Assembly: GCF_003367395.1 (NCBI RefSeq)
Contig: NZ_CP031417.1
Coordinates: 1,488,001-1,552,000, forward strand
Reading direction: 5' to 3'
Length of the DNA stretch: 64,000 bases
Source: Pseudolabrys taiwanensis
Lineage (GTDB): Bacteria > Pseudomonadota > Alphaproteobacteria > Rhizobiales > Xanthobacteraceae
Positions 48,181 to 64,000 of this stretch are shown in pieces. The notes below the pieces were generated by a model. That model saw only the letters and a list, made by a program, of their open reading frames with translations. It made no database searches and had not been told where the DNA came from. Position 1 is the first letter of the stretch. Each line of letters opens with the position of its first letter. Both the position numbers and the translations under genes were made by a program.

Positions 48181-48210
48181 GTGCGTCGGTCGCAGTCCTA
48201 ATCTCCGTCG

Positions 48211-48286: not shown

Positions 48287-48301
48287 CGAACGGTTTGTGC
48301 G

Positions 48302-49441
48302 TTACGCCGCCTTGTCGAGCGGCACCGCGGTCGCGTCGTAGGCGTAGACCCAGTCGGCATTGCCGCCCTGCTTGAGCCACTCGTTGCCGCGCGAGCCGAT
48401 CTGCACGCGCGCGGTGCGCTCCTTGCGCGCCTCTTCGTAGCGCTTGAGCGCATCCGGCACACCGGCATCGGTCACACCCGTCAGCGCGCGGCCGAGCACC
48501 ACCGCATCCTCGATCGCCATGCAGGCGCCCTGCGCCATGAACGGCACCATCGGATGGCAGGCATCGCCCAGCAGCGTAACGCGGCCGACCGACCAGACGG
48601 GCAGCGGATCGCGGATATAGAGCGCCGATTTGGTGACGCTCTCGGCGGCATCGAGCAGCGCCCGCGCTTGCGGATGGAAGTTGGCGTAGGCCTTGCGCAG
48701 CTCCGCGACATCGCCCGGCATGGTCCAGGACTCGTGGCGCCAGTCGTCCTGCGCCGTGGTGGCGAAGACGAAGATCTCCTTGCCCTTGTTCAGCGGGAAC
48801 GTGACGATCTGCAGATCGGGCGTCGGGCCCCACCATTTGGTGAAGGCGTCCAAGTTCGGCAGGTCGGCCACCTTCGCGCGGTCGAACACCGCGCGATACG
48901 AGACGAGCCCGGTGAAGCTCGGCTTCTCCGGACCGAACAGCGCCGTGCGCGTCATCGAATGGATGCCGTCAGCGCCCACCAGCACGTCGACGACGCGCGA
49001 GGTGCCGTTCTCGAACCGAACGATCGGCTTGTCGCCCGAGGTGTCGACCGCCGTGACGCGGTGGCCGAGCAACACACATTCCTCCGGCACTTCCCGGCGC
49101 AAGGCATCGAGGATGTCGGCGCGATGGATGGTGAGTTGCGGCGCGCCATACTTCTGCTCGGCCTCTTCCGCCATGGCGAGGCGCGACGTCTCCTCGCCGG
49201 TATCCCACATGCGGCTGATGCGATGCGTCGGCCGCGCCGCCGTCTCGCTCAGCGCCTCGAACACGCCGAGGCTCTTGGCCGCCCGGACCGCGTTCGGCGT
49301 CAGATTGATGTCGGCGCCGATGCGGCTGTAGTTCGTCGCCTGCTCGTAGACCTCGACGTCGTGGCCCGCCTTGCGCAGCGCGATCGCCGCCGCGAGGCCG
49401 CCGATGCCGCCACCATTGATGCCGATCTTCAACTTCGCCAT
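48302..49441 (-). CDS. FAD-dependent monooxygenase, NicC-like (6-hydroxynicotinate 3-monooxygenase / salicylate hydroxylase family)
   Basis: The 379-residue class A flavin monooxygenase has GGGIGG near residue 10, VGADGIHS and LLGDACHPMVPFMAQG. It resembles NicC at many points, notably IHRADI, FTKWWGP and the C-terminal NEWLKQGGNADWVYAYD. NicC hydroxylates and decarboxylates 6-hydroxynicotinate; relatives do the same with salicylate-type acids. GGAGGGG precedes ATG 49441. It is the last gene of the leftward arm of the IclR-controlled cluster, 16 bases after the SDR gene. Confidence 0.87.
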   Translation of the reverse strand: MAKLKIGINGGGIGGLAAAIALRKAGHDVEVYEQATNYSRIGADINLTPNAVRAAKSLGVFEALSETAARPTHRISRMWDTGEETSRLAMAEEAEQKYGAPQLTIHRADILDALRREVPEECVLLGHRVTAVDTSGDKPIVRFENGTSRVVDVLVGADGIHSMTRTALFGPEKPSFTGLVSYRAVFDRAKVADLPNLDAFTKWWGPTPDLQIVTFPLNKGKEIFVFATTAQDDWRHESWTMPGDVAELRKAYANFHPQARALLDAAESVTKSALYIRDPLPVWSVGRVTLLGDACHPMVPFMAQGACMAIEDAVVLGRALTGVTDAGVPDALKRYEEARKERTARVQIGSRGNEWLKQGGNADWVYAYDATAVPLDKAA

Positions 49442-49457
49442 GACTTCCCCTCCGATA

Positions 49458-50210
49458 TCAGTGCATCGAGAAACCACCGTCGACGGCGAGCGTCTGGCCG
49501 GTGATGAATTTGGAATCGTCGGACAATAGGAACGCCACGACGCCGTCGAGATCGTCGGGCTGCTGCGTGCGCTTGAGAATGGTGCGCTCGGCGTAGTCGT
49601 TCCAGCGCGTCTCGGGGATGTCCTTCGTTGCCTCGACCTTCGTCAGGCCGGGCAACAGGCAGTTGACGCGGATCATGCGCTCGCCGAACTCGCGCGCGAG
49701 CGAGCGCGTCATGCCGACGATCGCCGACTTGCTGGTGACGTAGTGCAACAGCTTGGGCGCGCCCCAATAGATCGTGTCGGACGACAACGTGACGATCGCG
49801 CCGCCGTTCTTCACCAAAGGTCCGAGCGCGCGAATGGTGAGCCAGGTGCCGCGCACGTTGATCGCCATCATACGATCCCAGACGTCCGGCGTGATCTCGT
49901 CATAGAGCTTGCCGCCGACATTGTTGGCCCAGCCGGCATTGGCAACGACGCCATGAATGCCGTCGACACCTTCCACCGATGCCTTCGCCAGCGCGGCAAC
50001 CGAGGCTTCCGATGAGATATCCGTCTGCACGAAGCGGGCATCGAGGCCTTGCGCCTTCAGCGCCTTCTCGGCCTCATGGCCCAGAGCCTCGTCGATCTCG
50101 GCGATGATCACGCTGGCGCCTTCCCGCGCCAGACGTTCGGCGAAGGCGAAGCCCAAGCCGCGCCCCGCCCCGGTGATCACAATGCGTTTGCCGCTAAAGC
50201 GCTGCGTCAT
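49458..50210 (-). CDS. Short-chain dehydrogenase/reductase
   Basis: The 250-residue classical SDR has TGAGRGLG (residues 13-20), NAGW, the catalytic Ser in LSSDT, and Tyr/Lys in HYVTSKSA, with CLLPGLTKVEA after them. All catalytic residues are present, so NAD(P)-dependent alcohol oxidation or ketone reduction is expected. It sits between the small unknown protein and the NicC-like monooxygenase with gaps of 9 and 16 bases, so it is part of one transcript. It could oxidise a dihydrodiol or a side-chain alcohol. Confidence 0.92.
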   Translation of the reverse strand: MTQRFSGKRIVITGAGRGLGFAFAERLAREGASVIIAEIDEALGHEAEKALKAQGLDARFVQTDISSEASVAALAKASVEGVDGIHGVVANAGWANNVGGKLYDEITPDVWDRMMAINVRGTWLTIRALGPLVKNGGAIVTLSSDTIYWGAPKLLHYVTSKSAIVGMTRSLAREFGERMIRVNCLLPGLTKVEATKDIPETRWNDYAERTILKRTQQPDDLDGVVAFLLSDDSKFITGQTLAVDGGFSMH

Positions 50211-50219
50211 GGTCGTCCT

Positions 50220-50579
50220 TCAGGTGGCATCGCCTTCGGCGACCACCGCGTATTGGAAATAATCGTTGCGATCGCGGTCATAGAGCGTGACCGACGAACC
50301 GCCGCCGGCGCGGCCGGAGAACGGCTCGCCGCTCGCCCGCTCGACGCCTTCGAAGAACACGTCGCCGACCAGTTTGAGCTCGATCGCGCCGGTCGGCACG
50401 ACAATGTCGTTGCCGTTCGAGCGCACCGAGAGCCCCGTCGTCACGTCGACGAAGCCGTCCGCCGTCGGCTTGATCTCGAAGGTCTCGCCGGTGCCGAGCG
50501 AATGCACGCGCACCGGACAGCGGCCGGACCGCCGCCGATGCGCCTCAACCGCCACGATGCGCCGCACGTCCGGGGTCAC
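50220..50579 (-). CDS. Small protein of unknown function in catabolic operon
   Basis: The 119-residue product starts at GTG 50579, supported by AAGGAG seven bases upstream. It is rich in beta-strand and turns (VRVHSLGTGETFEIKPTAD, then DIVVPTGAIELKLVGDVFF) and has no signal peptide or membrane segment. I do not recognise the family; a small beta-sandwich or an accessory subunit of a neighbouring enzyme is possible. It is tightly packed between the extradiol-type dioxygenase (12-base gap) and the SDR (9-base gap), so it surely belongs to the pathway. Confidence 0.75.
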   Translation of the reverse strand: MTPDVRRIVAVEAHRRRSGRCPVRVHSLGTGETFEIKPTADGFVDVTTGLSVRSNGNDIVVPTGAIELKLVGDVFFEGVERASGEPFSGRAGGGSSVTLYDRDRNDYFQYAVVAEGDAT

Positions 50580-50590
50580 GACATTGCTCC

Positions 50591-51541
50591 TTAGGCGTGG
50601 CCGCGGCCGCTCTTGTCGATGCCCTGCGCCTGGCGGCGCGTGTTGCCGTCGATGCCGCCGGCGATCGCCCATTCGGCGAACAGTTCCGGCTTGCGCTCGA
50701 AGGTCTGCGGCTTCCAGTCTTCGGTGCAGTAGTCCTCGTCGGCGTAATATTCGAGCGGCGCCGCCAGCGGATTTTCGAAGTACCAGAAATAGGCCGAGGA
50801 GATCGGATGCCGGCCGGGGCCGATCTCCGTCTTCCAGCCCTTCTTGCTCATCGCGATGCCGCCGCCGATCACCTCGTGAATGTCGGTGACGGTGAAGGCG
50901 ACGTGGTTGATGCCCGGCTTGCCGGGACGGTTGAGCACGAAGGTGTTGTGGTGATCGCCGACCTTCTGGCAGCGCATGAACACGCCATGGCCCGGATATT
51001 CGTCGCTGATGTGGAAGCCGAGCTTCTCGGTGTAGAAGGCCCGCATCGCCGCGAAGTCGTTGGCGAACAGCACGACGTGACCGATGTTGATCGGATGCGC
51101 TTGCGTGTGGATCGGCGAGCGCGAATTGACGCGGTTATGCGAGCCCGGCGCGTTCGGCATGGTCGGCTGCACGGTGACCGGCGTGCGCTTCGACACCCGG
51201 AACGCAAGGCTCATGCCGTTCGGATCTTTCACCCGCGGCAGACCGTCGGCGCCGACCTGAAAGCTGTCGAGCCCGCGCAAATTCTTCAGCGTCGCCTCGA
51301 GCTCCTGCTCGTTGGCCGCGCCCCAGATGACTTCGCGCACCGTCTTGCCGGCCTCGATCGCCGGCGGCAGATCGGCGGCCTCCATCGGCCGCACGATCGC
51401 CTCGGCGCCGTCGCGCGTGCGGTAAATCAGCTTGTCCGCGGTCGCCGAGACCTGTGTCAGGCCCCAGTCCTCGAGAAAGCGTTTGGATTCGGCCATGTCG
51501 GCGACGCCGAACACGACGGCATCGATACCCATCAGCGACAT
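50591..51541 (-). CDS. Two-domain vicinal-oxygen-chelate protein, extradiol dioxygenase-like
   Basis: The 316-residue protein has an N-terminal VOC half (about residues 5-118) and a catalytic C-terminal half (about 150-290). The iron ligands of type I extradiol dioxygenases can be placed at H155 (IGHVVLF), H213 (NHVAFTV) and E264 (LEYYADE). Such enzymes cut a catechol ring next to the hydroxyls. The substrate may be a catechol-like or hydroxypyridine-like diol produced by the monooxygenases of the cluster. Its 114-base leader holds a GC-rich inverted repeat. Confidence 0.88.
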   Translation of the reverse strand: MSLMGIDAVVFGVADMAESKRFLEDWGLTQVSATADKLIYRTRDGAEAIVRPMEAADLPPAIEAGKTVREVIWGAANEQELEATLKNLRGLDSFQVGADGLPRVKDPNGMSLAFRVSKRTPVTVQPTMPNAPGSHNRVNSRSPIHTQAHPINIGHVVLFANDFAAMRAFYTEKLGFHISDEYPGHGVFMRCQKVGDHHNTFVLNRPGKPGINHVAFTVTDIHEVIGGGIAMSKKGWKTEIGPGRHPISSAYFWYFENPLAAPLEYYADEDYCTEDWKPQTFERKPELFAEWAIAGGIDGNTRRQAQGIDKSGRGHA

Positions 51542-51605
51542 CGAATTCTCCCCTGCAGTCGGCGCGCGGATAATAGTCGCAGGCCGATCAACTTAAACAA
51601 TCGAC

Positions 51606-51646
51606 GGCGCGCCGGGCCGGATTACAACTCCCTGGTCCGGCGCGCC
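51606..51646. repeat. GC-rich inverted repeat between cupin and dioxygenase genes
   Basis: GGCGCGCCGG (51606-51615) and CCGGCGCGCC (51637-51646) are perfect 10-base inverted arms with a 21-base spacer in the gap after the cupin gene. It could be an mRNA-stabilising hairpin or partial terminator that lowers expression downstream. Confidence 0.45.
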
Positions 51647-51655
51647 GGTGCTAGA

Positions 51656-52186
51656 TCAGCGCTTGATCTTCGCCAGCGGATGATCCGCCGGATACGTCGG
51701 CGTGATCGGCTTGGGCGAACCGATCATGACCATCATGATCGCGTCCTCTTCGCCGATATTGATCTCGCCGCGATAGACACCCGGCGGCACCGAGATGCAA
51801 TCGCGCTCGCCGAGGATGGCCTCGAAGTACTCGCCGTCCTTCTCGACCATGACCTTGATCTTGCCGCGCAACACGAAGAACACCTCTTCGGCGTCGACGT
51901 GCAGATGCATCGGGCCCTCGCCGCCGGCGGGGATGATCATGTTGGAGAGCGTAAAGTGCTCGGCCGGAATGACGTTGGTGTCGCTCTTCACGCCGGTGCC
52001 GCCGGTGCCGATGAAGCGCTTCTGCGCGCGGCGATACTTCGGATCGAAGTCGGCCTGAAACTTGAGCGCGTTCCAGTCATAAGGCCGGTCGCTCACGCGG
52101 GCGATGCGGGTCTTCATCCAGTCTTCGAAGCTCGCGCCTTCCGGGCGGTCCCAGGAACGCTGGTTCGGGCGGGTCACGTCGTCCAT
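51656..52186 (-). CDS. Cupin-domain protein
   Basis: The 176-residue single-cupin protein has motif 1 GPMHLHVDAEEVFFVLRG, with two His and a Glu as metal ligands. Motif 2 reads PPGVYRGEIN, where the usual third His is replaced by Arg. It could be an oxygenase or isomerase with altered metal site or a binding protein. It is the second gene of the leftward arm, 28 bases after the IclR gene. Confidence 0.88.
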   Translation of the reverse strand: MDDVTRPNQRSWDRPEGASFEDWMKTRIARVSDRPYDWNALKFQADFDPKYRRAQKRFIGTGGTGVKSDTNVIPAEHFTLSNMIIPAGGEGPMHLHVDAEEVFFVLRGKIKVMVEKDGEYFEAILGERDCISVPPGVYRGEINIGEEDAIMMVMIGSPKPITPTYPADHPLAKIKR

Positions 52187-52214
52187 GTCTCAACTCCTCT
52201 CGTTTGTGCCTGTC

Positions 52215-53078
52215 TTATCGTGCGGACCTGCGGCTGAGGTCCTTGGTTTCCGAACCGTCGGCCTGATGGCCGAGGTCGCGTGAAATGGCGTCCGCCGCCG
52301 CGAGCACTTCGGCCCGCAACGGGCCGTTGAGCTCGCCATCGTTGGTGAGCAGCGCGACTGCGGAAATGTTGATGGCGGCGATGATGTGCCCGGTCATGTC
52401 GCGGATCGGCGCCGCGATGCTGGCAACACCGGGTTCATAGGCCGAGTTCTGCACCACCGCGCCGGCTTCCTGATCGCCGGCCAGTTGCTGAATGAAGCTC
52501 TCGAGCGAGACGCCACCGCCGGCGAAAGGCTCGTCGCGGTAAAGCTCCCTCACCTCATCCGCCGACAAGCCGGACAGCAGAATGCGGCCCATGGTCGTCG
52601 ACCGCGCCGGCAGGCGTGTGCCGACATGGACCGTGGAGGCGATCGAGCGGCGCGTCGCGACGCGGGCAAGATAAACGACGTCGCGGCCGTGCAGTTCGCC
52701 GAGATGCGCCGACCAGCCGGTGCGGTCCCGCAAGCGCACGAGATGCGGCATGGCGACCTCGACCAGGTCGCGCGAGGCGAGATAACCGTAGCCGAGCTGC
52801 AGCACCTGCGGTCCCAGCGCGTAGGTCTTGGTGTCGGCGTCGAAGGCGACAAAGCCCATATGGCCGAGCGTAAACAGCAGCCGATAGGCCGATGAGCGTG
52901 TGACGCCCAGCGCCGCCGCCACTTCCGACAGCGTCAACCGCCGCCGCTCGCCGGACAGCTCCTGCAGGATATTCAGACCGCGGATCAGCGCCGGCACGAG
53001 ATAGCGGTCGGACAGGTCCGCGGCGGGGGCCGATTTTGCCCCCTTCGACGCGGTCACTTTGTCGCGGCTCTTGACCAT
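52215..53078 (-). CDS. IclR-family transcriptional regulator
   Basis: The 287-residue IclR regulator has its winged helix at about residues 30-90 (LSEVAAALGVTRSSAYRLL) and an effector-binding domain from about residue 105 (LRDRTGWSAHLGELHGRDVVYLARV, split over two strands). ATG 53078 is chosen because the family similarity starts shortly after it; a longer frame exists but is unconvincing. It stands at the middle of the catabolic cluster, first gene of the left arm and divergent from the right arm, so it likely controls both in response to a pathway aromatic. Confidence 0.92.
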   Translation of the reverse strand: MVKSRDKVTASKGAKSAPAADLSDRYLVPALIRGLNILQELSGERRRLTLSEVAAALGVTRSSAYRLLFTLGHMGFVAFDADTKTYALGPQVLQLGYGYLASRDLVEVAMPHLVRLRDRTGWSAHLGELHGRDVVYLARVATRRSIASTVHVGTRLPARSTTMGRILLSGLSADEVRELYRDEPFAGGGVSLESFIQQLAGDQEAGAVVQNSAYEPGVASIAAPIRDMTGHIIAAINISAVALLTNDGELNGPLRAEVLAAADAISRDLGHQADGSETKDLSRRSAR

Positions 53079-53097
53079 GAAGCTACGGACGCTCGCC

Positions 53098-53138
53098 GAT
53101 GTTTTATATGCTAAACACAATATATCAAATAAAACATC
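53098..53138. promoter_or_regulatory. Inverted repeat just upstream of IclR gene
   Basis: GATGTTTTAT (53098-53107) and ATAAAACATC (53129-53138) are perfect 10-base inverted arms, 31 bp apart centre to centre, in an AT-rich stretch 20-60 bases before the IclR ATG. This is a good candidate for autoregulation of the left arm. Confidence 0.55.
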
Positions 53139-53304
53139 CGTCGAAAAGCGAAAAGCGCGCGCAGCCCAGGGATATATCGTTTCCGGTCGCCCCCTCCTTC
53201 GATAACGCTCTTCCAATAATCCATACGCACTGCGGCATTTTGCTCTCTCCGCATGCATGCACTGCACAAAATTTGGCGCTGATGAAGGATTGACTCTGAC
53301 GCTT

Positions 53305-53353
53305 GTTCAGGATTGAACTGTCGAAAGTACGAACTCATAGTTCATATACGAAC
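53305..53353. promoter_or_regulatory. GTTC/GAAC half-site array upstream of right arm
   Basis: GTTC-N6-GAAC occurs at 53305-53318 and again at 53340-53353, with GAAC-N5-GTTC at 53331-53343 sharing a half-site. TACGAAC is directly repeated at 53328 and 53347. The array ends 21 bases before the ABC ATPase start, a position fitting an operator that also covers the promoter. An IclR protein is the likely binder. Confidence 0.55.
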
Positions 53354-53374
53354 AATTCGACGGGGAGCTCCGCG

Positions 53375-54172
53375 GTGGCGTCTACAGCTACGCAGGTATT
53401 GGAGTTACAGGACGTCGCCCGCCGCTTTCCGGGGCGCACCGTTGGCGCACCGCCCTTCACCGCGGTCCGCAATCTTTCCTTCGACGTCCGCCGGAGCGAA
53501 TTCGTCTCCATCGTCGGACCGTCCGGCTGCGGCAAGAGCACGCTGCTCAATCTCGTCGCCGGTCTCGACCGGCCGAGCGAGGGCCGCGTCGCGCTCAACG
53601 GCGTCGAGGTCTCCGGCCCGAATTCCAGCGTCGGCTTCATGCTGCAGAAGGATCTGCTGCTGCCCTGGCGCACGGTGCTGCACAACGTCGAGTTCGGCCT
53701 CGAGGCGCGCAAGATGAGCGGGTCCGAGCGGCGCCAGCGCGCGATGCGCGAATTGGAGCGCTGCCGGCTGACCGAATTCGCCGACCGTTACCCCTATCAA
53801 ATCTCCGGCGGCCAGCGGCAGCGCGCGGCCCTCGCCCGCACACTCGCCATCGACCCCGATGTGGTGCTGCTTGACGAGCCCTTCTCCGCGCTCGACGCCC
53901 AGACCAAGCTGGTGCTGCAAAAGAGTTTTGCCGGCACCATCGCCAGTTCGGGCCTGACCACGCTGCTGATCACGCACGACCTCTCGGAAGCCGTGGCGAT
54001 GTCCGACCGCATCCTGGTGATGAGCGACCGGCCGGGCCGCATCGTCGAGGAAATCGAGGTCGGTCTGCCCGACCGCGACAACCCGATCGCGCGCGTCGCG
54101 ACGCCGCGCGCCGGCGAGATCGTCAAGCATCTCTTCCACTCGCTGCACATCGACACGCGGGAAGACGCATGA
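53375..54172 (+). CDS. NitT/TauT-family ABC transporter ATP-binding protein
   Basis: The 265-residue ATPase has Walker A GPSGCGKST, Q-loop MLQKD, signature ISGGQRQRA, Walker B VVLLDEPF and switch LITHDLSEA. GTG 53375 is chosen, with GGGGAG seven bases upstream; an earlier in-frame start at 53303 would put coding sequence over the half-site array. It opens the right arm and overlaps the monooxygenase gene as ATGA. The cognate receptor and permease lie 1.2-2.2 kb downstream. Confidence 0.93.
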   Translation: MASTATQVLELQDVARRFPGRTVGAPPFTAVRNLSFDVRRSEFVSIVGPSGCGKSTLLNLVAGLDRPSEGRVALNGVEVSGPNSSVGFMLQKDLLLPWRTVLHNVEFGLEARKMSGSERRQRAMRELERCRLTEFADRYPYQISGGQRQRAALARTLAIDPDVVLLDEPFSALDAQTKLVLQKSFAGTIASSGLTTLLITHDLSEAVAMSDRILVMSDRPGRIVEEIEVGLPDRDNPIARVATPRAGEIVKHLFHSLHIDTREDA

Positions 54173-55323
54173 ACCGACGCGTCGTCATCATCGGTGGCGG
54201 CATTGCGGGCTCGGCGCTCGCGATCGCACTCGCCCGCCGTGGCATGACGACGACGTTGATCGAGCGCGAGGCGCAGTGGGCGCCGCTGAGCTCGGGCCTG
54301 TTCATCTACAGCAACGGCCTTGCCGCGCTCGACGGGCTCGGCGTGCTCGACGACATCTGCGCCAGCGGCTGGGTGAGCCCCGACGGCGGCAATCTCTATC
54401 TCGCGGCCGACGGCAAGGCCATCACGCGCACGCTTTATCCCGGCATCGGCGACCGCATTCCGGCCATCGTCGGCATGCGTCGCGCCGAGCTGCACCGCAT
54501 TCTGGCAGGCGCCGTCGCGGCGCTCGGCGTCGACGTCCGGCTCGGCACCACGGTGACGGCTGTCGAAACCGGCGATGCGACGCGCGCCGCCAGCGTTACC
54601 TTGTCGGACGGCAGCACCATGACCTGCGACGTCCTCGTCGGCGCCGACGGCATCCGCTCGCAGATTCGCACGCTCTTGTTCGGCGCGCTGGAGCCGACCT
54701 ACACCGGCTTCGGCGTCTGGCGCTCGATGCACAAGAAGCCGGCGAGCATCGATCAGAAGATTATGATGATGGGCGTTGGCATCCGCCTCGGCATCATGCC
54801 GATCAGCCGCGACCAGCTCTATATGTTCGGCACGACGCGCGAGCCCGGCAAGCCGTTCTATGCGCGCGACACCTGGGCGCAGGAGATGCGCGTGAAGTTC
54901 GCGGCATTCAAAGGCCCGGCCGAAGCGCTGCTCGCCGAAATCACCGATGCCGCGCAGGTCTTCTACACCTCGGTCGAGGAAGTGCACCTGCCCCTGCCCT
55001 GGAGCCGCGGCCGCGCCGTTCTGATCGGCGATGCCGCGCACTCGTCCTCGCCGTTCATGGGTCAGGGCGGCGCCATGGCGCTCGAGGACGCCATCGTGCT
55101 CGCCGACATGTTGGGCGACGCTTCCGACATTCCGGCGACGCTCGATGCTTTCGGCCAGCGCCGTTTCGAACGCTGCAAGTTCGTGCAGGACGCCTCGCGC
55201 CGCGTCGGCGAAGCCGGCGCGATCGAAGACGCCGCGGCGTCGCAAATCCGAAACACGCGGATGCAGGCCGGCGCGCAGAAAGACGTCGACGATTTCTACG
55301 CACGCATGGCGGAGCCGATCTGA
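54169..55323 (+). CDS. FAD-dependent aromatic monooxygenase
   Basis: The 384-residue class A flavoprotein has IIGGGIAGSALA (GxGxxG near residue 9), VGADGIRSQIR and LIGDAAHSSSPFMGQGG. It differs clearly from the NicC-like enzyme at 48302: there is no WVYAYD tail and the substrate half carries several Met. NAD(P)H-dependent hydroxylation of a phenolic or heteroaromatic acid is expected. Coupled to the ATPase gene by ATGA; its stop overlaps the mini-ORF start as TGATG. Confidence 0.9.
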   Translation: MNRRVVIIGGGIAGSALAIALARRGMTTTLIEREAQWAPLSSGLFIYSNGLAALDGLGVLDDICASGWVSPDGGNLYLAADGKAITRTLYPGIGDRIPAIVGMRRAELHRILAGAVAALGVDVRLGTTVTAVETGDATRAASVTLSDGSTMTCDVLVGADGIRSQIRTLLFGALEPTYTGFGVWRSMHKKPASIDQKIMMMGVGIRLGIMPISRDQLYMFGTTREPGKPFYARDTWAQEMRVKFAAFKGPAEALLAEITDAAQVFYTSVEEVHLPLPWSRGRAVLIGDAAHSSSPFMGQGGAMALEDAIVLADMLGDASDIPATLDAFGQRRFERCKFVQDASRRVGEAGAIEDAAASQIRNTRMQAGAQKDVDDFYARMAEPI

Positions 55324-55415: not shown

Positions 55416-55416
55416 T

Positions 55417-56394: not shown

Positions 56395-56399
56395 GAACC

Positions 56400-57263: not shown

Positions 57264-58096
57264 CGATCGCCGCCGACATCGCGCGCGCGACGCCCGGCTA
57301 TGTCGCCGGCATCGGCTTCCTGCGTCGCCCCGCCCGGGGTGGCGCGGGCTTGCCGCTGGTGCTGCTGCACGGCATCGGCAGCAACGCCAAGAGCTACACC
57401 GGGTTGATGGCGGCGCTGCCGCCGGCGCTCGACGTCATCGCCTGGAATGCGCCAGGCTACGCGACGTCGCAGCCGCTGACCGTTGCCGCCCCCACCCCGC
57501 GCGATTATGCCCAGGCCCTCGCCAAGCTGCTCGATGGGCTCGGCCTGACGCGGATCGTGCTGGCCGGTCACTCGCTCGGCTGCCTGTTCGCGGCGAGCTT
57601 TGCGACGCTCTATCCCTCGCGCGTTGCGTCGCTCGCGCTGTTGTCGCCCGCGCTCGGCTACAAGATCGCCCCGGGCGAAACGCTGCCGCCCAAGGTGCAG
57701 GCCCGCATCGACGAGATCGAGACGCTCGGCCCCGAAGCGTTCGCCGCGCAGCGTGCGGCGCGCCTCGTGTTCGAGCCCGAACGCAAGCCGCAGGTGCTCG
57801 CCTCCGTGCGCGAGGCCATGGCGGCGGTCAATCCGCCCGGTTACGCACAGGCCGTGCGCGCGCTCGGCGCCGGCGATTTGCTGGCCGACGCGGCACAGAT
57901 CACCGCGCCCACACTCGTCGCCGTCGGTGCCGAGGACGTCATCACGCCGCCCGCCAACGCCCGCGCGACCTACGATGCACTGCCGAACGGCGCCGGCTAT
58001 CACGAGATCGCGGGCACCGGTCACGCCATGCCGCAAGAAAATCCGGCGGCCGTCGCGGCGCTGCTTGCCGAACTGATCGAGGCCGGCCATGGCTGA
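57260..58096 (+). CDS. Alpha/beta hydrolase
   Basis: The 278-residue alpha/beta-hydrolase has the oxyanion HGIGSN, nucleophile elbow GHSLG with S105, an acid in GAEDVITPP and catalytic His in GTGHAMP. The layout resembles ring-cleavage-product hydrolases and enol-lactonases of aromatic pathways as well as NicD-type deformylases. In this cluster it may cleave the ring-fission product or a substrate ester or amide. It overlaps the permease before it and the IclR gene after it (8 bases), so it is firmly in the operon. Confidence 0.9.
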   Translation: MTIAADIARATPGYVAGIGFLRRPARGGAGLPLVLLHGIGSNAKSYTGLMAALPPALDVIAWNAPGYATSQPLTVAAPTPRDYAQALAKLLDGLGLTRIVLAGHSLGCLFAASFATLYPSRVASLALLSPALGYKIAPGETLPPKVQARIDEIETLGPEAFAAQRAARLVFEPERKPQVLASVREAMAAVNPPGYAQAVRALGAGDLLADAAQITAPTLVAVGAEDVITPPANARATYDALPNGAGYHEIAGTGHAMPQENPAAVAALLAELIEAGHG

Positions 58097-58964
58097 AAAG
58101 CACGCCGCCGAAACGGAAGAGCGCGACGACGGCCTTTACATTTCGCCGCCGGTGCAACGTGCCGCGCGTCTGCTGCGCCATATCGCCGAGGGCGATCGCG
58201 TCACCAACATGTCGCGCACGGCGCGCGAGCTCGGCATCAACCGCACCACATTGCTACGCCTGTTGCACACGCTGGAAGCCGAACGCTTCATCGAGCCGCG
58301 GCCCGAGGGCCAGGGTTGGCGCATCGGCGTCGGCCTCATCGGCATCACGGCGCAGGCCTTCTTCTCCGAGGACCTGGTGCAGATCTCGGTGCCGGTGCTG
58401 ACGCGGCTCGCCGAGAACCTGAGCCTCTCCGCCCATCTCGGCGTGCTCGATGGCCTCGAGATCGTCTACATCGTGCGCCGCGTACCGAACCACGCTTTCG
58501 CCAGCAATATCCGCATCGGCAGCCGCCTGCCCGCGCACGCCGCCAATATGGGCCGCATCATGCTCGCGCATATGCCGCCCGACCGCGTCGATCGCATGTA
58601 TGCCGGCGCGGTGCTCAAGGCAGTGACGCCGCATACCTCGGTAACCTTGGCGCAGCTGCACGCCCAACTCGACGCCGACCGCATCGCCGGCCTCGCCTGG
58701 AGCGACGGCAACTACGAAGCCGGCATCAGTTCGGTCGCGGCCGCGATCTTCGACGCGACCGGCACGCCGATTGCCGCGCTCAATGTGAGCGGCCATGCCG
58801 CCGACTTCGCCGGCACCGCGCGCCACACGCAGATTGGCGCGCAGGTGCAAACCGCGGCGGCCGAGATTTCGCAACGGCTCGGCTGGCACGGCGCGACCGC
58901 CGCGCGCGCCGAAGCGAGAGCGGTCGATCGTTCGCGGCGTACATCGTCGCCCGTCGCAAATTGA
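58089..58964 (+). CDS. IclR-family transcriptional regulator
   Basis: The 291-residue IclR has its winged helix at about residues 15-75 (MSRTARELGINRTTLLRLLH) and an effector domain with LSLSAHLGVLDGLEIVYIV and AGISSVAAAIFDATG. It is the second IclR protein of the cluster and lies inside the right-arm operon, overlapping the hydrolase gene. It may control the downstream half of the pathway or act together with the divergent IclR at 52215. Confidence 0.92.
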   Translation: MAEKHAAETEERDDGLYISPPVQRAARLLRHIAEGDRVTNMSRTARELGINRTTLLRLLHTLEAERFIEPRPEGQGWRIGVGLIGITAQAFFSEDLVQISVPVLTRLAENLSLSAHLGVLDGLEIVYIVRRVPNHAFASNIRIGSRLPAHAANMGRIMLAHMPPDRVDRMYAGAVLKAVTPHTSVTLAQLHAQLDADRIAGLAWSDGNYEAGISSVAAAIFDATGTPIAALNVSGHAADFAGTARHTQIGAQVQTAAAEISQRLGWHGATAARAEARAVDRSRRTSSPVAN

Positions 58965-58974
58965 GGGTACGGCT

Positions 58975-59766
58975 TTGGACTTGGGACTGAGCAACAGCGT
59001 CGCGGTGGTCACGGGCGGAAGCTCGGGCATCGGCTTGGCCACGGCGAAAATCCTCATCGCCGAAGGCGCCCGCGTCGCCATCTGCGGCCGCGATGCCGCG
59101 CGCCTCGCCGCCGCCAAGGAAAAGCTCGACGCCATTAAGCCGGGCGCGGCCCTCGCCGAAGTCTGCGATGTGCTGAACGCCGACGCGGTGAAAGCCTTCG
59201 CCGACAAAGTCGCGGCCTGGGGCGGCAGCAAGCTCGATTTGCTTGTCAACAATGCCGGTCAGGGCCGCGTCTCGACCTTCGCCAACACCACCGACGCGCA
59301 ATGGCGCGAGGAGCTCGATCTCAAGTTCTTCAGCCAGATCCTGCCGATCCGCGCCTTCAAGCCGCTGCTCGACGCGGCGCCGGCGCCGGCCATCGTCGCG
59401 GTCAATTCGCTGCTGTCGCTGCAGCCCGAGGCGCACATGGTCTGCACCTCGGCGGCGCGCGCGGGCGTGCAGAACCTGCTCAAGTCGCTCGCGACCGAGT
59501 TCGCACCGCACATCCGCGTCAACACGATCCTGATCGGCCTCGTCGATAGCGGTCAGTGGCAGCGCCGCTTCGAAGCGCGCACCGACAAAACGCAGACGCG
59601 CGAAGCGTGGTACGGCGCGCTTGCGCGCGACAAGAAGATCCCGTTGCAGCGGCTGGGCGAACCTGAAGAGCCCGCCCGCGCCATCGTCTTCCTCGGCTCA
59701 CAAGCCGCCAGCTACATCACCGGCGCCAGCCTCGAAATCTCGGGCGGCGTTTCGCGCTTTATCTAG
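58975..59766 (+). CDS. Short-chain dehydrogenase/reductase with altered active site
   Basis: The 263-residue SDR starts at TTG 58975, with GAGGG seven bases upstream. The cofactor motif GGSSGIG (14-20) and NNAG are intact, and SGGVSRFI closes the fold. The catalytic YxxxK is replaced: the aligned stretch reads T158-SAA-R162 in VCTSAARAGV. The Ser position (S145/S148) may remain. It could bind NAD(P) but use another base, or be non-catalytic. Between IclR and the ThDP enzyme, with short gaps. Confidence 0.88.
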   Translation: MDLGLSNSVAVVTGGSSGIGLATAKILIAEGARVAICGRDAARLAAAKEKLDAIKPGAALAEVCDVLNADAVKAFADKVAAWGGSKLDLLVNNAGQGRVSTFANTTDAQWREELDLKFFSQILPIRAFKPLLDAAPAPAIVAVNSLLSLQPEAHMVCTSAARAGVQNLLKSLATEFAPHIRVNTILIGLVDSGQWQRRFEARTDKTQTREAWYGALARDKKIPLQRLGEPEEPARAIVFLGSQAASYITGASLEISGGVSRFI

Positions 59767-59784
59767 GACCGGGCAACGAAGGCC

Positions 59785-61485
59785 ATGAAATTCTCCGTCA
59801 TCACCGCCGAGCGCGCCTCACCACCGACCCATGCGCTTCAGAGCGAACCGGTCGGCGACGCCATCGCACGCGCCCTCGCCGACATGGGCGTCACCACCGT
59901 GTTCGGGGTGATCTCGATTCATAACATGCCGATCCTCGACGCGATCGCGCGCCATGGCCGCATCCGCTTCGTGCCAGCGCGCGGCGAAGCCGGCGCCATG
60001 AACATGGCCGACGCTTACGCCCGTGTGTCGCGCTCGCTCGGCGTCGCCATCACCTCGACCGGCACCGCGGCGGGTAACGCCGCCGGCTCGCAGGTCGAAG
60101 CCCTCACCGCCGGTTCGCCGGTGCTGCATATCACCACGCAGGTCGACCGCGAATTCGCCGACCGCGATCGCGCCGCCATCCATGACGTGCCGCGTCAGCC
60201 GGACATGCTGAAGGCGATCAGCAAGTGCTATCTGCGCGTCTGGGAGCCGGCCGCCGCCATCGACACGCTCGTCGCCGCGGCGCGCGAAGCCATCAGCGCG
60301 CCGAGCGGGCCCGTGACCCTGGAGATTCCGGTCGACGTCCAACGCAGCATGGTGCCGCTGCGCACGCTGAATGGCATGCCGCCAGCGGTACGCCGCGACG
60401 CCGACAGCGCGCAGCTCGATGTTCTGGCCGAACGCGTGCGCAAGGCCAAGCGGCCGATGCTGTGGCTCGGCGGCGGCGCGCGGGGCGCGGCGGAAGCGGC
60501 GACCGCCCTCGCCGATCGCGGCTTCGGCATCGTCACCTCGACCAACGGCCGCGCCGTCGTGCCGGAGGATCATCCGCACAGCCTCGGCGCTTTCAACATG
60601 ACGCGCGAGGCGATGGAGATCTATGCCCGCACCGATCTTCTGATCGTGGTCGGCTCGCGCCTGCGCGGCAACGAAACCCAGAACAACCGCATGCCGCTGC
60701 CGCCGATCGTCCAGATCGACGCCGATCCGACGCAGGCCGCGCGCAATTATCCGGTCGACATGTTCATCGACGCCGACGCGGAGCTCGCGCTCGAGGGCCT
60801 TCTCGCGCGGCTGCCCGCCAAGCTCGACGCCGACGCGACCTTCCTTGCCGATATCGGCGCCGCGCGCGCCCGCGCCGAAGCGACGCTGCGCAACGGCCTC
60901 GGCCCCTATAGCGCGCTCGCCGACACGATCCGCGATCGTGTGTTCAAGAACGGCCACCCTTGGGTGCGCGACGTCACCATCTCCAACAGCACCTTCGGCA
61001 ACCGTTATGTGCGCATCGCCGCGCCCCACTTGGGCGTGCATGCGCTCGGCGGCGGCATCGGCCAAGGCATCGCCATGGGCATCGGTGCGGCTTTGGCCGG
61101 TGGGCCTGCCAAGACCGTGACGCTGCTCGGCGACGGCGGCGCGCAATTGATGATCGGCGAGTTCGCCACCGCGGTCGAGATGCAGGCCGACATGGTGTTC
61201 GTGCTGATGAACGACAAAGGCTACGGCGTCATCCGCAACATCCAGGACGCGCAGTACGGCAGCCGTCACGTCTATTCCAACATCCTGACGCCGGACTTCG
61301 CGCTCATCGCCCAGGCGGTCGGCCTGCCGCACGAACGCATCGCCGACATTGCGCAGTTCGAGGCCGCCTTCGACCGCGCGCTCGCCACCAAGGGCCCGCG
61401 CCTGATCGAAATCGACATGGTCGCGATCGGCCCGTTCAGCCAGAGCTTTGCCGGCCCGCCGGCCGGCGCCGCGGGGAATTCCTGA
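59785..61485 (+). CDS. Thiamine-diphosphate-dependent enzyme, 2-oxo acid decarboxylase-like
   Basis: The 566-residue ThDP enzyme has a PYR domain with E68 in PARGEAGAMNMADAYAR (the usual preceding His is Gly), a central domain with SRLRGNETQNNRMPLPP, and a PP domain with LLGDGGAQLMIGEF to LMNDKGYGVIRN, the metal and cofactor motif. The family holds acetolactate synthase, benzoylformate decarboxylase and similar enzymes. The aldehyde dehydrogenase gene overlapping its stop (TGATG) suggests that it makes an aldehyde from a 2-oxo acid. It is distinct from the ThDP protein at 24970. Confidence 0.88.
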   Translation: MKFSVITAERASPPTHALQSEPVGDAIARALADMGVTTVFGVISIHNMPILDAIARHGRIRFVPARGEAGAMNMADAYARVSRSLGVAITSTGTAAGNAAGSQVEALTAGSPVLHITTQVDREFADRDRAAIHDVPRQPDMLKAISKCYLRVWEPAAAIDTLVAAAREAISAPSGPVTLEIPVDVQRSMVPLRTLNGMPPAVRRDADSAQLDVLAERVRKAKRPMLWLGGGARGAAEAATALADRGFGIVTSTNGRAVVPEDHPHSLGAFNMTREAMEIYARTDLLIVVGSRLRGNETQNNRMPLPPIVQIDADPTQAARNYPVDMFIDADAELALEGLLARLPAKLDADATFLADIGAARARAEATLRNGLGPYSALADTIRDRVFKNGHPWVRDVTISNSTFGNRYVRIAAPHLGVHALGGGIGQGIAMGIGAALAGGPAKTVTLLGDGGAQLMIGEFATAVEMQADMVFVLMNDKGYGVIRNIQDAQYGSRHVYSNILTPDFALIAQAVGLPHERIADIAQFEAAFDRALATKGPRLIEIDMVAIGPFSQSFAGPPAGAAGNS

Positions 61486-62975
61486 TGGACCAGGCCGTCA
61501 CCTTCCAGGACAAGCTGTATATCGGCGGCGAATGGCGTCGCGGCGGTGGCGCCGAGATCGCGTCCAACTTCCCGGCCGACGGCTCGGTCAACACCAAGCT
61601 GGCCGGCGCCTCGCTGGAGGACACCGACCTCGCCATCGCGCGCGCACAGGAAGCGGTCAACGATCCCAAGTGGCGCAAGCTGCTGCCGCATGAACGCGCG
61701 ACGTTCCTTTACAAGATCTCGGAAGGCATCGCCCGCAACGCCGACCGCATCTCGCATGTGCAGTCGCGCGACACCGGCAAGACCCTGACCGAAACGCGCG
61801 CCCTGGCGCTCAGCGCCGCCGGCACCTTCCGCTATATGGCGGCGGCGCTCGAGACGGCGGAAGACGCCCTCACCCCCGCGCGCGGCAACTACCTGACCAT
61901 GTCGGTCTACGAGCCGCTCGGCGTCACCGCCGGCATCACGCCGTGGAATTCGCCGATCGCCTCCGACGCGCAGAAGGTCGCGCCCGCGCTCGCCGCCGGC
62001 AACGCCATCCTGCTCAAGCCGTCGTCCTGGAGCCCGCTGGTCTGTCTCGAACTCGCGCGCATCATCGACGAGGCCGGCCTGCCGAAAGGCCTATTCTCGA
62101 CCTTGCCCGGCGCGGGCGCAATCGTCGGCGAACGGCTGGTGACGCATCCGGCCATCCGCAAGGTGTCCTTCACCGGCGGCACCGAGACGGGCCGCGATAT
62201 TGCGCGCAAGGCCGCCGACAAGCTGATGCCGGTGTCGCTCGAACTGGGCGGCAAGTCGCCGACCATCGTCTTCGCCGACGCCGATCTCGATCTTGCCGTC
62301 GCCGGCGTGATGTTCGGCGTGTTCTCCTCGACCGGGCAGTCCTGCATCGCCGGCTCGCGCCTGTTCGTCGAGCGATCGATCTACGATGCGTTCGTTGCCA
62401 AGCTGGTCGCGGCGACCGAGCGGCTGCGCGTCGGCCATCCGTTCGAAGCGACGACACAAGTCGCCCCGCTGATCCGGCCGAAGCATCGCGACGAGGTCGA
62501 GGGCCACGTCAAGCGCGCCCGCGAAGACGGCGGCAAGGTGCTGACCGGCGGCGAGCGCCCCACCGGCACCGGCTATGCCGACGGTACCTATTATCGTCCG
62601 ACCATCATCGCCGGTCTCGGCAACGACAGCCGGTTATGCCGTGAGGAAGTGTTCGGTCCGGTGCTTGCTGTGCTGCCGTTCGACAACGAGGACGATCTCG
62701 TCGCCCAATCGAACGACAACAGCTACGGCCTCGCCTGCGGCATCTACACCCGCGACTTCCCCAAGGCGTGGCGGATCGCGCGCGCGATCGACACCGGCAC
62801 GGTGTGGATCAACACCTACAAGCAGTTCTCGATTTCGACGCCGTTCGGCGGCACCAAGGATTCCGGTCTCGGCCGCGAGAAGGGCCGCGAAGGCATCCGG
62901 GCCTGGATGGCGCAGAAGTCGCTGTATTGCGATCTGAGCGAAGCACCCCATCCTTGGGCCAAAAGCGCGTTGTGA
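61485..62975 (+). CDS. NAD(P)-dependent aldehyde dehydrogenase
   Basis: The 496-residue aldehyde dehydrogenase has catalytic C287 in STGQSCIAG, general base E253 in LELGGKSP, the cofactor motif SFTGGTETG and the C-terminal PFGGTKDSGLGREKG. All key residues are present. ATG 61485 overlaps the ThDP enzyme stop. It probably oxidises the aldehyde made by that enzyme to a carboxylic acid for the ring-attacking steps. Betaine aldehyde-like and benzaldehyde-like enzymes share this length. Confidence 0.95.
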   Translation: MDQAVTFQDKLYIGGEWRRGGGAEIASNFPADGSVNTKLAGASLEDTDLAIARAQEAVNDPKWRKLLPHERATFLYKISEGIARNADRISHVQSRDTGKTLTETRALALSAAGTFRYMAAALETAEDALTPARGNYLTMSVYEPLGVTAGITPWNSPIASDAQKVAPALAAGNAILLKPSSWSPLVCLELARIIDEAGLPKGLFSTLPGAGAIVGERLVTHPAIRKVSFTGGTETGRDIARKAADKLMPVSLELGGKSPTIVFADADLDLAVAGVMFGVFSSTGQSCIAGSRLFVERSIYDAFVAKLVAATERLRVGHPFEATTQVAPLIRPKHRDEVEGHVKRAREDGGKVLTGGERPTGTGYADGTYYRPTIIAGLGNDSRLCREEVFGPVLAVLPFDNEDDLVAQSNDNSYGLACGIYTRDFPKAWRIARAIDTGTVWINTYKQFSISTPFGGTKDSGLGREKGREGIRAWMAQKSLYCDLSEAPHPWAKSAL

Positions 62976-62984
62976 GGATCGAGG

Positions 62985-63980
62985 ATGGCGGACGTGGCGG
63001 AGTTGACTGAGCCTGTGACCATGACGGCACCACGTGCGGGCGAACAGACCTTCGAGGCGCGCGTACGCGCGCTGATCTGGGAGGCGCCGGGCGTGCTGTC
63101 GCTCGAGCTCGCCGCGCCCGATGGCGGCGCATTGCCGGCGTTCGAGCCCGGCGCGCATATCGATCTGAAGCTGCCCGACGGCACGTTGCGGCAATATTCG
63201 CTGTGCGGCGATCCCAACGACCTGTCGCATTACCGGCTCGGCATCCGCGCGGTCTCGGGCGGCATGTCGTCGGGCTATGTCCATCGCAAGCTCCGCCCCG
63301 GCGATCTCGTCACCGTCAGCGCGCCGCGCAACAATTTCCCGCTCGTCGAGGCCAAGCACTACATCTTCGTCGCGGGCGGCATCGGCGTCACGCCCTTCAT
63401 CCCGATGATGCGCGAAGTGAGCGCCAAGCACGGCTCCTTCACCCTGCTCTACTGCAACAAGCGTAACGAAGACGCGCCGTTCCTCAACGAGATCAAGAAG
63501 CTCGGCGGCGAACTCTCCCTGCACGCGTCCGAAGCCGGCACGCGGCTCGACGTCGCGCAGCGGCTGACCGCGGTGGAGAAGGACGCGGTCATCTACTGTT
63601 GCGGCCCCGAGAAGCTGATGCTCGCGGTCGAGGAAGCAACCGCCGCGTGGCCGGAAGGCACCGTGCATTTCGAGTGGTTCGCGCCGCGCGCGCGGCCGGA
63701 AGACGAAGTCAGCGGCGCGTTCGAGGTCGTATGCGAGCGCTCCGGCCTGACCGTGACGGTGCCGCCCGATAAGTCGATCCTCGACGTGCTCACCGAAGCC
63801 GGCATCGATATCCCGCGCTCCTGCGAGCAAGGCATTTGCGGCACCTGCGAGGTGCGCGTGATCTCCGGCGACATCGACCACCGCGACAGCATCCTGTCGT
63901 CGTCCGAGCGCGCCGCCAATCAGACGATGATGACCTGCGTGTCGCGCGCGAAGAGCGGACGGCTGGTGCTCGACATCTGA
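62985..63980 (+). CDS. Oxygenase reductase component (FMN / NAD / plant-type 2Fe-2S, VanB-like)
   Basis: The 331-residue protein has the phthalate dioxygenase reductase order. The FMN-binding barrel carries RQYSL at 69-73, the NAD domain has GGIGVTP at 131-137 and CCGPEKLM near 205, and the C-terminal ferredoxin has C280, C285, C288 and C318. It takes electrons from NADH to a Rieske oxygenase or O-demethylase. No oxygenase component is in the window; the gene ends 20 bases before the edge, so the partner is probably the next gene. The start is ATG 62985 with GAGGATCGAGG upstream. Confidence 0.93.
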   Translation: MADVAELTEPVTMTAPRAGEQTFEARVRALIWEAPGVLSLELAAPDGGALPAFEPGAHIDLKLPDGTLRQYSLCGDPNDLSHYRLGIRAVSGGMSSGYVHRKLRPGDLVTVSAPRNNFPLVEAKHYIFVAGGIGVTPFIPMMREVSAKHGSFTLLYCNKRNEDAPFLNEIKKLGGELSLHASEAGTRLDVAQRLTAVEKDAVIYCCGPEKLMLAVEEATAAWPEGTVHFEWFAPRARPEDEVSGAFEVVCERSGLTVTVPPDKSILDVLTEAGIDIPRSCEQGICGTCEVRVISGDIDHRDSILSSSERAANQTMMTCVSRAKSGRLVLDI

Positions 63981-64000
63981 CGCAGGACGAAAAAGGACGA

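What the first reader, a model, noticed from the sequence alone, without database searches (positions are those of the whole stretch)
48302..63980. Bidirectional IclR-centred catabolic cluster of unknown substrate
Sixteen or so tightly packed genes radiate from an IclR gene and its operator region. The left arm has a cupin, extradiol-type dioxygenase, unknown protein, SDR and NicC-like monooxygenase. The right arm has a complete ABC importer with a second monooxygenase, hydrolase, second IclR, altered SDR, ThDP enzyme, aldehyde dehydrogenase and oxygenase reductase. The combination of a 2-oxo acid decarboxylase-like step with aldehyde oxidation, two ring hydroxylases, a ring-cleavage enzyme and a Rieske reductase matches no pathway I can name. 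A mandelate- or phenylglyoxylate-like side chain on a hydroxylated or N-heterocyclic ring would fit.
Basis: partly seen in the sequence, partly recalled or inferred. Interest (0 to 1): 0.75.

Follow-up and report, generated by a model that had tools for sequence, protein, structure and literature searches.

The report
Probable kynurenate-degrading gene cluster
These genes form one conserved bacterial pathway that most likely breaks down kynurenic acid (or a close quinoline relative), a tryptophan waste product whose bacterial degradation was described in the 1960s but whose genes seem not to have been assigned.

Summary
In detail: 16 tightly packed genes diverge from an IclR gene and a conserved operator region. 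The right arm runs past the window into two Rieske oxygenases, a metallo-hydrolase, a RidA-like protein and a TctC receptor. The two arms are one unit: 41 of 50 distinct loci counted carry left- and right-arm genes together, in several Betaproteobacteria and a Klebsiella record as one same-strand run. Most relatives add an aspartate dehydrogenase (29 of 35 loci with at least 4 of 6 core genes). Rieske oxygenase, coupled SDR, extradiol dioxygenase, ThDP enzyme and aldehyde dehydrogenase match, step for step, the classical kynurenate ('quinoline') pathway as I recall it; only its first step's citation was seen. A ring-opening cupin, a hydrolase and AspDH would finish the pyridine ring, the nitrogen leaving as iminoaspartate (inference). 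The substrate is not proven: tryptophan dioxygenase is not linked, the ene-reductase is uncertain, and several proteins lack roles. The chemistry would be known and the gene assignment new, as far as limited open-library searches show.

The parts
48302..49477 (-). MOX1: single-component FAD aromatic monooxygenase, closest solved relatives 6-hydroxynicotinate 3-monooxygenase and tropone 2-monooxygenase; accessory (15 of 35 well-covered loci)
49458..50210 (-). SDR1: short-chain dehydrogenase; relatives overlap the end of the Rieske oxygenase gene (8 of 11 Rieske genes in 10 annotated records), hence proposed cis-dihydrodiol dehydrogenase
50220..50579 (-). UNK: 119-aa conserved protein, no Pfam family; predicted N-terminal helix plus beta strands (pLDDT 90.8)
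50591..51541 (-). VOC: extradiol-type ring-cleavage dioxygenase; presumed metal ligands H155, H213, E264 invariant in 11 of 11 aligned
51656..52186 (-). CUP: small cupin, HxH...E motif invariant in the 10 and 20 sequences aligned, canonical fourth His absent (Tyr); proposed opening of the 6-hydroxy-4-pyridone ring
52215..53078 (-). ICL1: IclR-type regulator (287 aa from ATG at 53078)
53100..53135 (.). Conserved operator-like element next to ICL1, in 8 of 8 aligned loci
53290..53354 (.). Conserved promoter/operator-like element before the right arm: TTGACT followed by three alternating GTTC/GAAC half-site pairs; seen in the 4 of 8 aligned stretches that reach it (one only in part)
53375..54172 (+). 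ABC transporter ATPase (start inferred after the operator; open frame from 53303)
54169..55323 (+). MOX2: second FAD monooxygenase (nearest named families PRK06847 and HpxO urate hydroxylase, both below cut-off); role unknown
55417..56394 (+). Periplasmic substrate-binding protein, NMT1/SsuA type
56391..57263 (+). ABC transporter permease
57260..58096 (+). HYD: alpha/beta hydrolase (nearest PcaD-type families, all below cut-off); proposed C-C bond hydrolase
58089..58964 (+). ICL2: second IclR-type regulator
58975..59766 (+). SDR2: short-chain dehydrogenase, over the cut-off of family PRK07062 (start inferred; open frame from 58795); possible ene-reductase, uncertain
59785..61485 (+). ThDP enzyme, over the cut-off of family PRK07064 (no named function); proposed 2-oxo acid decarboxylase
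61485..62975 (+). Aldehyde dehydrogenase, start overlapping the ThDP stop (no AspDH between them here); below the cut-offs of named families such as betaine-aldehyde and HpaE dehydrogenase
62985..63980 (+). Oxygenase reductase (FAD, NAD, C-terminal 2Fe-2S), presumed partner of the Rieske oxygenases just past the window (L009:2088-3152 and 4802-5881)

Best explanation
One catabolic unit that takes up and breaks down a quinoline-2-carboxylate, most likely kynurenate. Proposed order: (1) Rieske oxygenase + reductase dihydroxylates the unsubstituted benzo ring (7,8-dihydrodiol); (2) SDR1 oxidises the diol to 7,8-dihydroxykynurenate; (3) the VOC dioxygenase cleaves between C8 and C8a, leaving a pyridine with a -CH=CH-CO-COOH side chain; (4) the double bond is reduced (SDR2 possible, unproven); (5) the ThDP enzyme decarboxylates the 2-oxo acid to an aldehyde; (6) the aldehyde dehydrogenase gives 5-(2-carboxyethyl)-4,6-dihydroxypicolinate; (7) the cupin opens this 6-hydroxy-4-pyridone ring and (8) the alpha/beta hydrolase splits the chain into iminoaspartate and glutarate (or 2-hydroxyglutarate, if a FAD monooxygenase acts first); (9) aspartate dehydrogenase captures iminoaspartate in most relatives. 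In this genome that gene is missing from the operon, and spontaneous hydrolysis, the 30%-identical homologue at 3.28 Mb, or the RidA-like protein might stand in. MOX1 would be a second entry, e.g. C7 hydroxylation of xanthurenate to the same catechol. Two IclR proteins and two conserved operator-like elements would control the arms. Shown: genes, order, conservation, conserved motif residues of VOC and cupin, conserved intergenic elements. Inferred: every reaction, the regulation and the substrate.
For: Gene content and order. Both arms together in 41 of 50 distinct loci counted; one same-strand run in K. pneumoniae and in betaproteobacterial L063, L070, L073, L074. SDR1-type gene overlapping the end of the Rieske gene for 8 of 11 Rieske genes in 10 annotated records, as expected for diol formation then dehydrogenation. 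Within the conserved run of genes no hydratase, aldolase or CoA ligase of a usual meta-cleavage route is listed; ThDP + ALDH travel with the extradiol enzyme instead (the plasmid gene tables are incomplete, and flanks do hold unrelated examples). AspDH in 29 of 35 well-covered loci suggests nitrogen in the ring, and AspDHs of K. pneumoniae and Delftia are active on oxaloacetate in vitro (PMC5554190, abstract and passages). The isoflavone (ifc) pathway is a chemical precedent: FAD monooxygenase at C8, glyoxalase-type dioxygenase on the A ring, then a cupin that acts on a 2-hydroxy-4-pyranone, the oxygen analogue of a 6-hydroxy-4-pyridone (PMC11069340, sections 15-17). Kynurenate 7,8-hydroxylation as an enzymatic fact: title of Taniuchi and Hayaishi 1963 seen in a reference list; the later intermediates are recalled. 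A second Rieske/ThDP/VOC set in Caballeronia NK8 sits beside a molybdenum hydroxylase whose best solved relative is 4-hydroxybenzoyl-CoA reductase, with quinoline 2-oxidoreductase fourth: suggestive only.
Against: No link to tryptophan catabolism: tryptophan dioxygenase occurs in 16 of 28 genomes that carry the VOC gene, but the window genome's own protein finds no relative in any of the other 102 fetched loci; G000's gene is at 4.17 Mb. SDR2, the only ene-reductase candidate, is missing from 5 of 35 well-covered loci. The operon here lacks AspDH, and in its RidA-like protein the arginine of canonical relatives aligns with serine (that this arginine is catalytic is recalled). The VOC of Paracoccus, Vibrio and Pseudosulfitobacter is only 23-26% identical to the window's although ThDP and others are conserved. 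L061, L077 and L078, not cut by contig ends, hold a VOC relative without the right arm. MOX2, MBL, UNK and the 114-aa ORF have no assigned step. A flanking CoA transferase/acyl-CoA dehydrogenase pair in Pseudosulfitobacter did not prove glutarate-specific. I recall that PA3499, the best PDB relative of the RidA-like protein, lies beside the AspDH gene in P. aeruginosa PAO1; if that strain has the cluster and does not grow on kynurenate, the substrate must be something else.
Confidence: 0.5

Rival explanations
1. Same pathway logic, but the physiological substrate is another N-containing bicycle: xanthurenate, quinaldate, a 4-quinolone or a relative. The catechol is still cleaved next to the ring fusion and the side chain still goes through ThDP decarboxylation and aldehyde oxidation.
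For: MOX1 is present in 15 of 35 well-covered loci, and a frameshifted MOX1 stands without a Rieske gene in the 30 kb read of V. nigripulchritudo, suggesting a second, already hydroxylated substrate. A molybdenum hydroxylase stands beside a second copy set in Caballeronia NK8. The VOC is exchanged for a distant relative in some lineages.
Against: AspDH in 29 of 35 is best explained by a carboxyl at C2 and an oxygen at C4, i.e. kynurenate or xanthurenate (inference).
Confidence: 0.25
2. A flavonoid/chromone A-ring pathway like fde/ifc: FAD monooxygenase, glyoxalase-type extradiol dioxygenase, cupin and alpha/beta hydrolase acting on an oxygen heterocycle.
For: The same four enzyme kinds occur in the ifc hotspot, similar to fde (PMC11069340).
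Against: The conserved core here has Rieske oxygenase (26 of 35), SDR1 (33 of 35), ThDP and AspDH (29 of 35), while MOX1 is optional (15 of 35). AspDH makes little sense for an oxygen ring. No direct sequence comparison with Ifc/Fde proteins was possible here.
Confidence: 0.08
3. One reading: a mandelate/phenylglyoxylate-like aromatic acid whose 2-oxo acid side chain is decarboxylated at the start.
For: ThDP enzyme plus aldehyde dehydrogenase plus ring hydroxylases are present.
Against: ThDP scores 139.8 against a cut-off of 493 for benzoylformate decarboxylase. It would not explain AspDH (29 of 35).
Confidence: 0.05
4. Riboflavin/lumichrome-type catabolism (lum), which also combines a ThDP decarboxylase, a Rieske dioxygenase and an extradiol enzyme.
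For: Same enzyme kinds in the abstract, opening part and two result sections read of PMC12746152.
Against: lum needs a P450, ring-opening hydrolases, a xanthine oxidase, a two-subunit ThDP enzyme (20 and 23 kDa) and an alpha/beta Rieske; the cluster genes scanned here include no P450, amidase or xanthine oxidase, and the ThDP protein is a single 566-aa chain.
Confidence: 0.03
5. The two arms are separate pathways that merely share a regulator region in this genus.
For: Two different IclR genes and two different conserved elements; loci with VOC but no right arm exist (L061, L077, L078 untruncated). Distances of left-arm VOC correlate less well with right-arm HYD, ThDP and SDR2 (r 0.62-0.71) and with MOX1 (0.35).
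Against: Left- and right-arm genes together in 41 of 50 loci and in a single same-strand run in K. pneumoniae and several Betaproteobacteria; left-arm CUP distances correlate with HYD, ThDP and SDR2 at r 0.85-0.89 over 26 to 31 loci (no species-tree control).
Confidence: 0.05

Closest known systems
Kynurenate ('quinoline') pathway of tryptophan catabolism (Hayaishi, Taniuchi, Kuno; recalled, with enzymes EC 1.14.99.2, 1.3.1.18, 1.13.11.10 recalled as orphans)
   Same: Arene hydroxylation to a diol, diol dehydrogenation, extradiol cleavage, 2-oxo acid decarboxylation and aldehyde oxidation all have a candidate gene here.
   Different: No paper tying genes to it turned up in the listings of my searches (capped listings); a clear ene-reductase is not identified; the lower pyridine-ring steps are inferred.
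ifc isoflavone catabolism of Variovorax and fde naringenin catabolism of Herbaspirillum (PMC11069340)
   Same: Cleavage of the benzo ring of a fused heterocycle by a glyoxalase-type dioxygenase, followed by a cupin acting on a 2-hydroxy-4-pyranone; alpha/beta hydrolase nearby.
   Different: Ring hydroxylation there by a FAD monooxygenase; ThDP enzyme, AspDH and Rieske oxygenase are not mentioned in the sections read (15-17).
lum lumichrome catabolism of Nocardioides simplex (PMC12746152)
   Same: ThDP decarboxylase, Rieske dioxygenase, extradiol dioxygenase.
   Different: P450, ring-opening hydrolases, xanthine oxidase, two-subunit ThDP enzyme.
NicC 6-hydroxynicotinate 3-monooxygenase (nicotinate pathway)
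   Same: Best solved relative of MOX1 (E 3.5e-82).
   Different: MOX1 is accessory here; partners of the nicotinate pathway were not specifically searched for.
Characterised aspartate dehydrogenases of K. pneumoniae and Delftia (PMC5554190)
   Same: A protein over an AspDH cut-off is encoded inside this cluster in K. pneumoniae.
   Different: They were studied for aspartate production; the passages read do not discuss a catabolic context. Identity of the studied K. pneumoniae protein with the clustered one is presumed.

Membership tests
Kynurenate pathway | Oxygenase able to dihydroxylate the benzo ring | tested here: inconclusive
   Two Rieske oxygenases of the VanA_C type follow the reductase gene; regio- and substrate specificity unknown.
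Kynurenate pathway | Dihydrodiol dehydrogenase | tested here: inconclusive
   SDR1 relatives overlap the Rieske gene for 8 of 11 Rieske genes; activity not tested.
Kynurenate pathway | Extradiol (8,8a-type) ring-cleavage dioxygenase | tested here: inconclusive
   Extradiol family and invariant presumed metal ligands; cleavage position not testable.
Kynurenate pathway | 2-oxo acid decarboxylase and aldehyde dehydrogenase for the side chain | tested here: inconclusive
   ThDP enzyme (over the cut-off of unnamed PRK07064) and ALDH (Pfam, below named cut-offs) adjacent; substrates unknown.
Kynurenate pathway | Reductase for the side-chain double bond | tested here: inconclusive
   SDR2 is the only candidate and is absent from 5 of 35 well-covered loci.
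Kynurenate pathway | Growth on, or conversion of, kynurenate | not testable with these tools
   Needs the bench.
fde/ifc flavonoid catabolism | Initiating FAD monooxygenase as obligatory first enzyme | tested here: not met
   MOX1-type genes in 15 of 35 well-covered loci only; Rieske oxygenase in 26 of 35. Loci cut by contig or fetch limits lower both counts.
fde/ifc flavonoid catabolism | Sequence relationship to FdeE/IfcA, FdeC/IfcB, IfcD | not tested
   Reference sequences were not at hand.
lum lumichrome catabolism | P450, ring-opening hydrolases and two-subunit ThDP decarboxylase | tested here: not met
   Single-chain 566-aa ThDP enzyme; no P450 or amidase family among the cluster proteins scanned.
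Mandelate/benzoylformate pathway | Benzoylformate decarboxylase equivalog | tested here: not met
   139.8 bits against cut-off 493.

The most novel reading that the evidence does not exclude
This is the missing gene set of bacterial kynurenate catabolism, spread over Alpha-, Beta- and Gammaproteobacteria including human-associated Klebsiella and Acinetobacter. It has a new lower route in which a cupin opens the hydroxypyridone ring and the ring nitrogen leaves as iminoaspartate that aspartate dehydrogenase turns into aspartate, which would also explain why mesophilic bacteria keep an aspartate dehydrogenase in an aromatic-degradation operon.
Probability: 0.4. Interest if true: 0.75.

Novelty: new variant of a known kind. 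Interest (0 to 1): 0.6.

Why it matters
Kynurenate is a neuroactive and immune-active product of tryptophan in animals and is common in plants and honey (recalled). The bacterial route for degrading it was worked out chemically in the 1960s, but its enzymes are, to my knowledge, still without genes. A testable gene set would close several orphan enzyme entries, give a marker for kynurenate loss in gut and soil metagenomes, and give a reason for the aspartate dehydrogenases of aerobic Proteobacteria.
Full report
What is there. The window is G000:C1:1488001-1552000 of a 5.59-Mb genome held as one contig. Named records with the closest VOC relatives are titled Pseudolabrys, Rhodopseudomonas, Bradyrhizobium, Rhizobiales, Rhizobium or Proteobacteria. 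Sixteen genes lie between 48302 and 63980. Six run left, ICL1 included; ten run right. Start corrections: ICL1 starts at 53078, the small unknown protein at 50579 and, by inference, the ATPase at about 53375 and SDR2 at about 58975. The aldehyde dehydrogenase start overlaps the ThDP stop. The right arm continues outside the window: 114-aa ORF, HTH_62-like ORF, Rieske oxygenase, MBL hydrolase, RidA-like protein, second Rieske oxygenase, TctC (L009:1506-6891, i.e. about window positions 64005-69390).

Control region. Aligning the ICL1/ATPase intergenic region of eight loci (window, L035, L036, L043, L045, L046, L047, L055) shows two conserved elements: an AT-rich element at 53100-53135 beside ICL1 in 8 of 8, and, in the four whose stretch reaches it (L046 only in part), TTGACT followed by alternating GTTC/GAAC half-sites at 53290-53354 before the right arm. 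Two of the three half-site pairs are among only 12 GTTC-N3-8-GAAC matches in the whole window and one among 9 of the reverse arrangement. Two elements and two IclR genes suggest separate control of the arms; this is inference. No Rfam family reached its gathering score in 44000-64000.

One unit. I mapped the cluster proteins onto fetched loci. Of 50 distinct loci, the window not counted, 41 have a left-arm and a right-arm gene together. The nine without are L052, L056, L061, L065, L066, L075, L077, L078 and L095; most are cut by contig or fetch ends, but L061, L077 and L078 are not. Dropped before the count: duplicates of loci already in, pieces fetched as flanks, and two distinct loci that would count as misses (L039, ThDP and ALDH relatives without VOC or cupin in 20 kb; L097, a VOC relative in 3.9 kb). 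Among the 35 loci with at least 4 of 6 core genes: IclR 35, SDR1 33, AspDH 29, Rieske 26, MOX1 15, RidA-like 3; flanks cut by contig or fetch limits lower the Rieske, MOX1 and RidA counts. In K. pneumoniae the ferredoxin, HTH protein, Rieske, SDR1, IclR, VOC, ferredoxin reductase, MFS, cupin, hydrolase, SDR2, AspDH, ALDH and ThDP genes form one same-strand run; its nine proteins with window counterparts (eight enzymes and IclR) are 36-61% identical to them. A. baumannii has the same order of enzymes, with IclR divergent. The cluster is accessory: VOC relatives at E<=1e-50 in 2 of 369 genomes of a class sample, one being the centre genome, 4 of 89 in the genus of a record titled Comamonas, and at 80% identity or more in 5 of 24 genomes of the window's genus counting its own.

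Reading the chemistry. In the 10 annotated records with a Rieske gene, 8 of 11 Rieske genes are overlapped at their end by SDR1. That suggests cis-dihydroxylation followed by diol dehydrogenation, so the substrate ring probably carries no hydroxyl group. The VOC protein is an extradiol enzyme with its presumed metal ligands invariant in 11 of 11. Within the conserved run the annotated clusters list no hydratase, aldolase, tautomerase or CoA ligase of the usual lower routes (the plasmid gene tables are incomplete); they list a ThDP enzyme and an aldehyde dehydrogenase instead. In the classical kynurenate pathway (recalled from established biochemistry: kynurenate, 7,8-dihydrodiol, 7,8-dihydroxykynurenate, oxopropenyl- and oxopropyl-dihydroxypicolinate, formylethyl- and carboxyethyl-dihydroxypicolinate) these enzyme kinds are needed in this order. 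The first step's primary paper was seen only as a reference title (Taniuchi and Hayaishi 1963).

The nitrogen. AspDH is the most frequent gene that the window lacks; its K. pneumoniae member exceeds an AspDH subfamily cut-off (401.5 against 177), and AspDHs of K. pneumoniae 34618 and Delftia Cs1-4 aminate oxaloacetate in vitro (PMC5554190, abstract and passages). Hydrolysis of carboxyethyl-dihydroxypicolinate across its lactam and the beta-keto bond gives iminoaspartate plus glutarate with balanced atoms (C9H9NO6 + 2 H2O = C4H5NO4 + C5H8O4; my calculation). The cupin is a plausible ring opener because the isoflavone cupins IfcD1/D2 act on 2-hydroxy-5-(4-hydroxyphenyl)-4H-pyran-4-one and give C10H10O3 (i.e. 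+H2O -CO2, my arithmetic) and C10H10O4 (PMC11069340). No sequence comparison with IfcD was possible.

Second entry. MOX1 is optional. In V. nigripulchritudo a MOX1 gene, frameshifted in the record read, stands in a cluster without Rieske or SDR1 within the 30 kb read. An already hydroxylated substrate such as xanthurenate, hydroxylated to the same catechol, would fit.

What does not fit. No tryptophan dioxygenase linkage; other kynurenine-pathway genes were not searched. SDR2 missing in 5 of 35. This genome's operon has no AspDH; the only homologue found is 30% identical at 3.28 Mb. In the RidA-like protein the arginine of canonical relatives aligns with serine. The VOC of one set of lineages is a distant relative (23-26%). 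MOX2, MBL, UNK and the 114-aa ORF are unexplained. My probability that the true substrate is kynurenate itself is about one half; that it is kynurenate or another N-containing bicycle, about three quarters; that the arms plus Rieske genes are one pathway, above 0.9.

Literature status. In the held open library, searches for combinations of enzyme names, kynurenate terms and locus tags showed no paper assigning these genes in their listings. Several listings were capped (see Tried and rejected); paywalled papers and supplements were not searched. So novelty is claimed only to that extent.

Noticed in passing
L086:1785-11016 (Caballeronia sp. NK8 pNK84): A second module of ferredoxin, HTH protein, Rieske oxygenase, ThDP enzyme and VOC protein is followed by a three-subunit molybdenum hydroxylase and an SRPBCC protein: possibly an entry route for another heterocycle.
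   Followed up: partly
L084, L085, L088 (Paracoccus, Vibrio, Pseudosulfitobacter): The VOC dioxygenase is only 23-26% identical to the window's while the ThDP enzyme is 61-69% identical: an apparent exchange of the ring-cleavage enzyme within a conserved operon.
   Followed up: partly
L061:10001-10951 (Commensalibacter MAG): A lone VOC relative, 61% identical, with no other cluster gene found in the 21 kb read.
   Followed up: no
[not shown]
   Followed up: partly
L080 and L081 (plasmid records of K. pneumoniae and A. baumannii): The flanks hold chromosomal-looking genes (metK, speA, tkt; pgaBCD), so these 'plasmid' records may be chromosomal segments or fusions, and the cluster there may be chromosomal.
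   Followed up: no
L085:19208-20155: The MOX1 gene of V. nigripulchritudo pVNTG1 is frameshifted in this record and is absent from its gene table.
   Followed up: partly
window 46386-47510 and 47767-48180: Left neighbours are a polysaccharide deacetylase and a DUF3830 protein; no evidence that they belong to the cluster.
   Followed up: no
L009:7496-11281: Beyond the cluster: a HpaB-type hydroxylase gene and an AidB-like acyl-CoA dehydrogenase on the opposite strand.
   Followed up: no
L051 and L072: In these short contigs the ThDP gene is not followed by AspDH or ALDH; L072 goes straight on to VOC.
   Followed up: no
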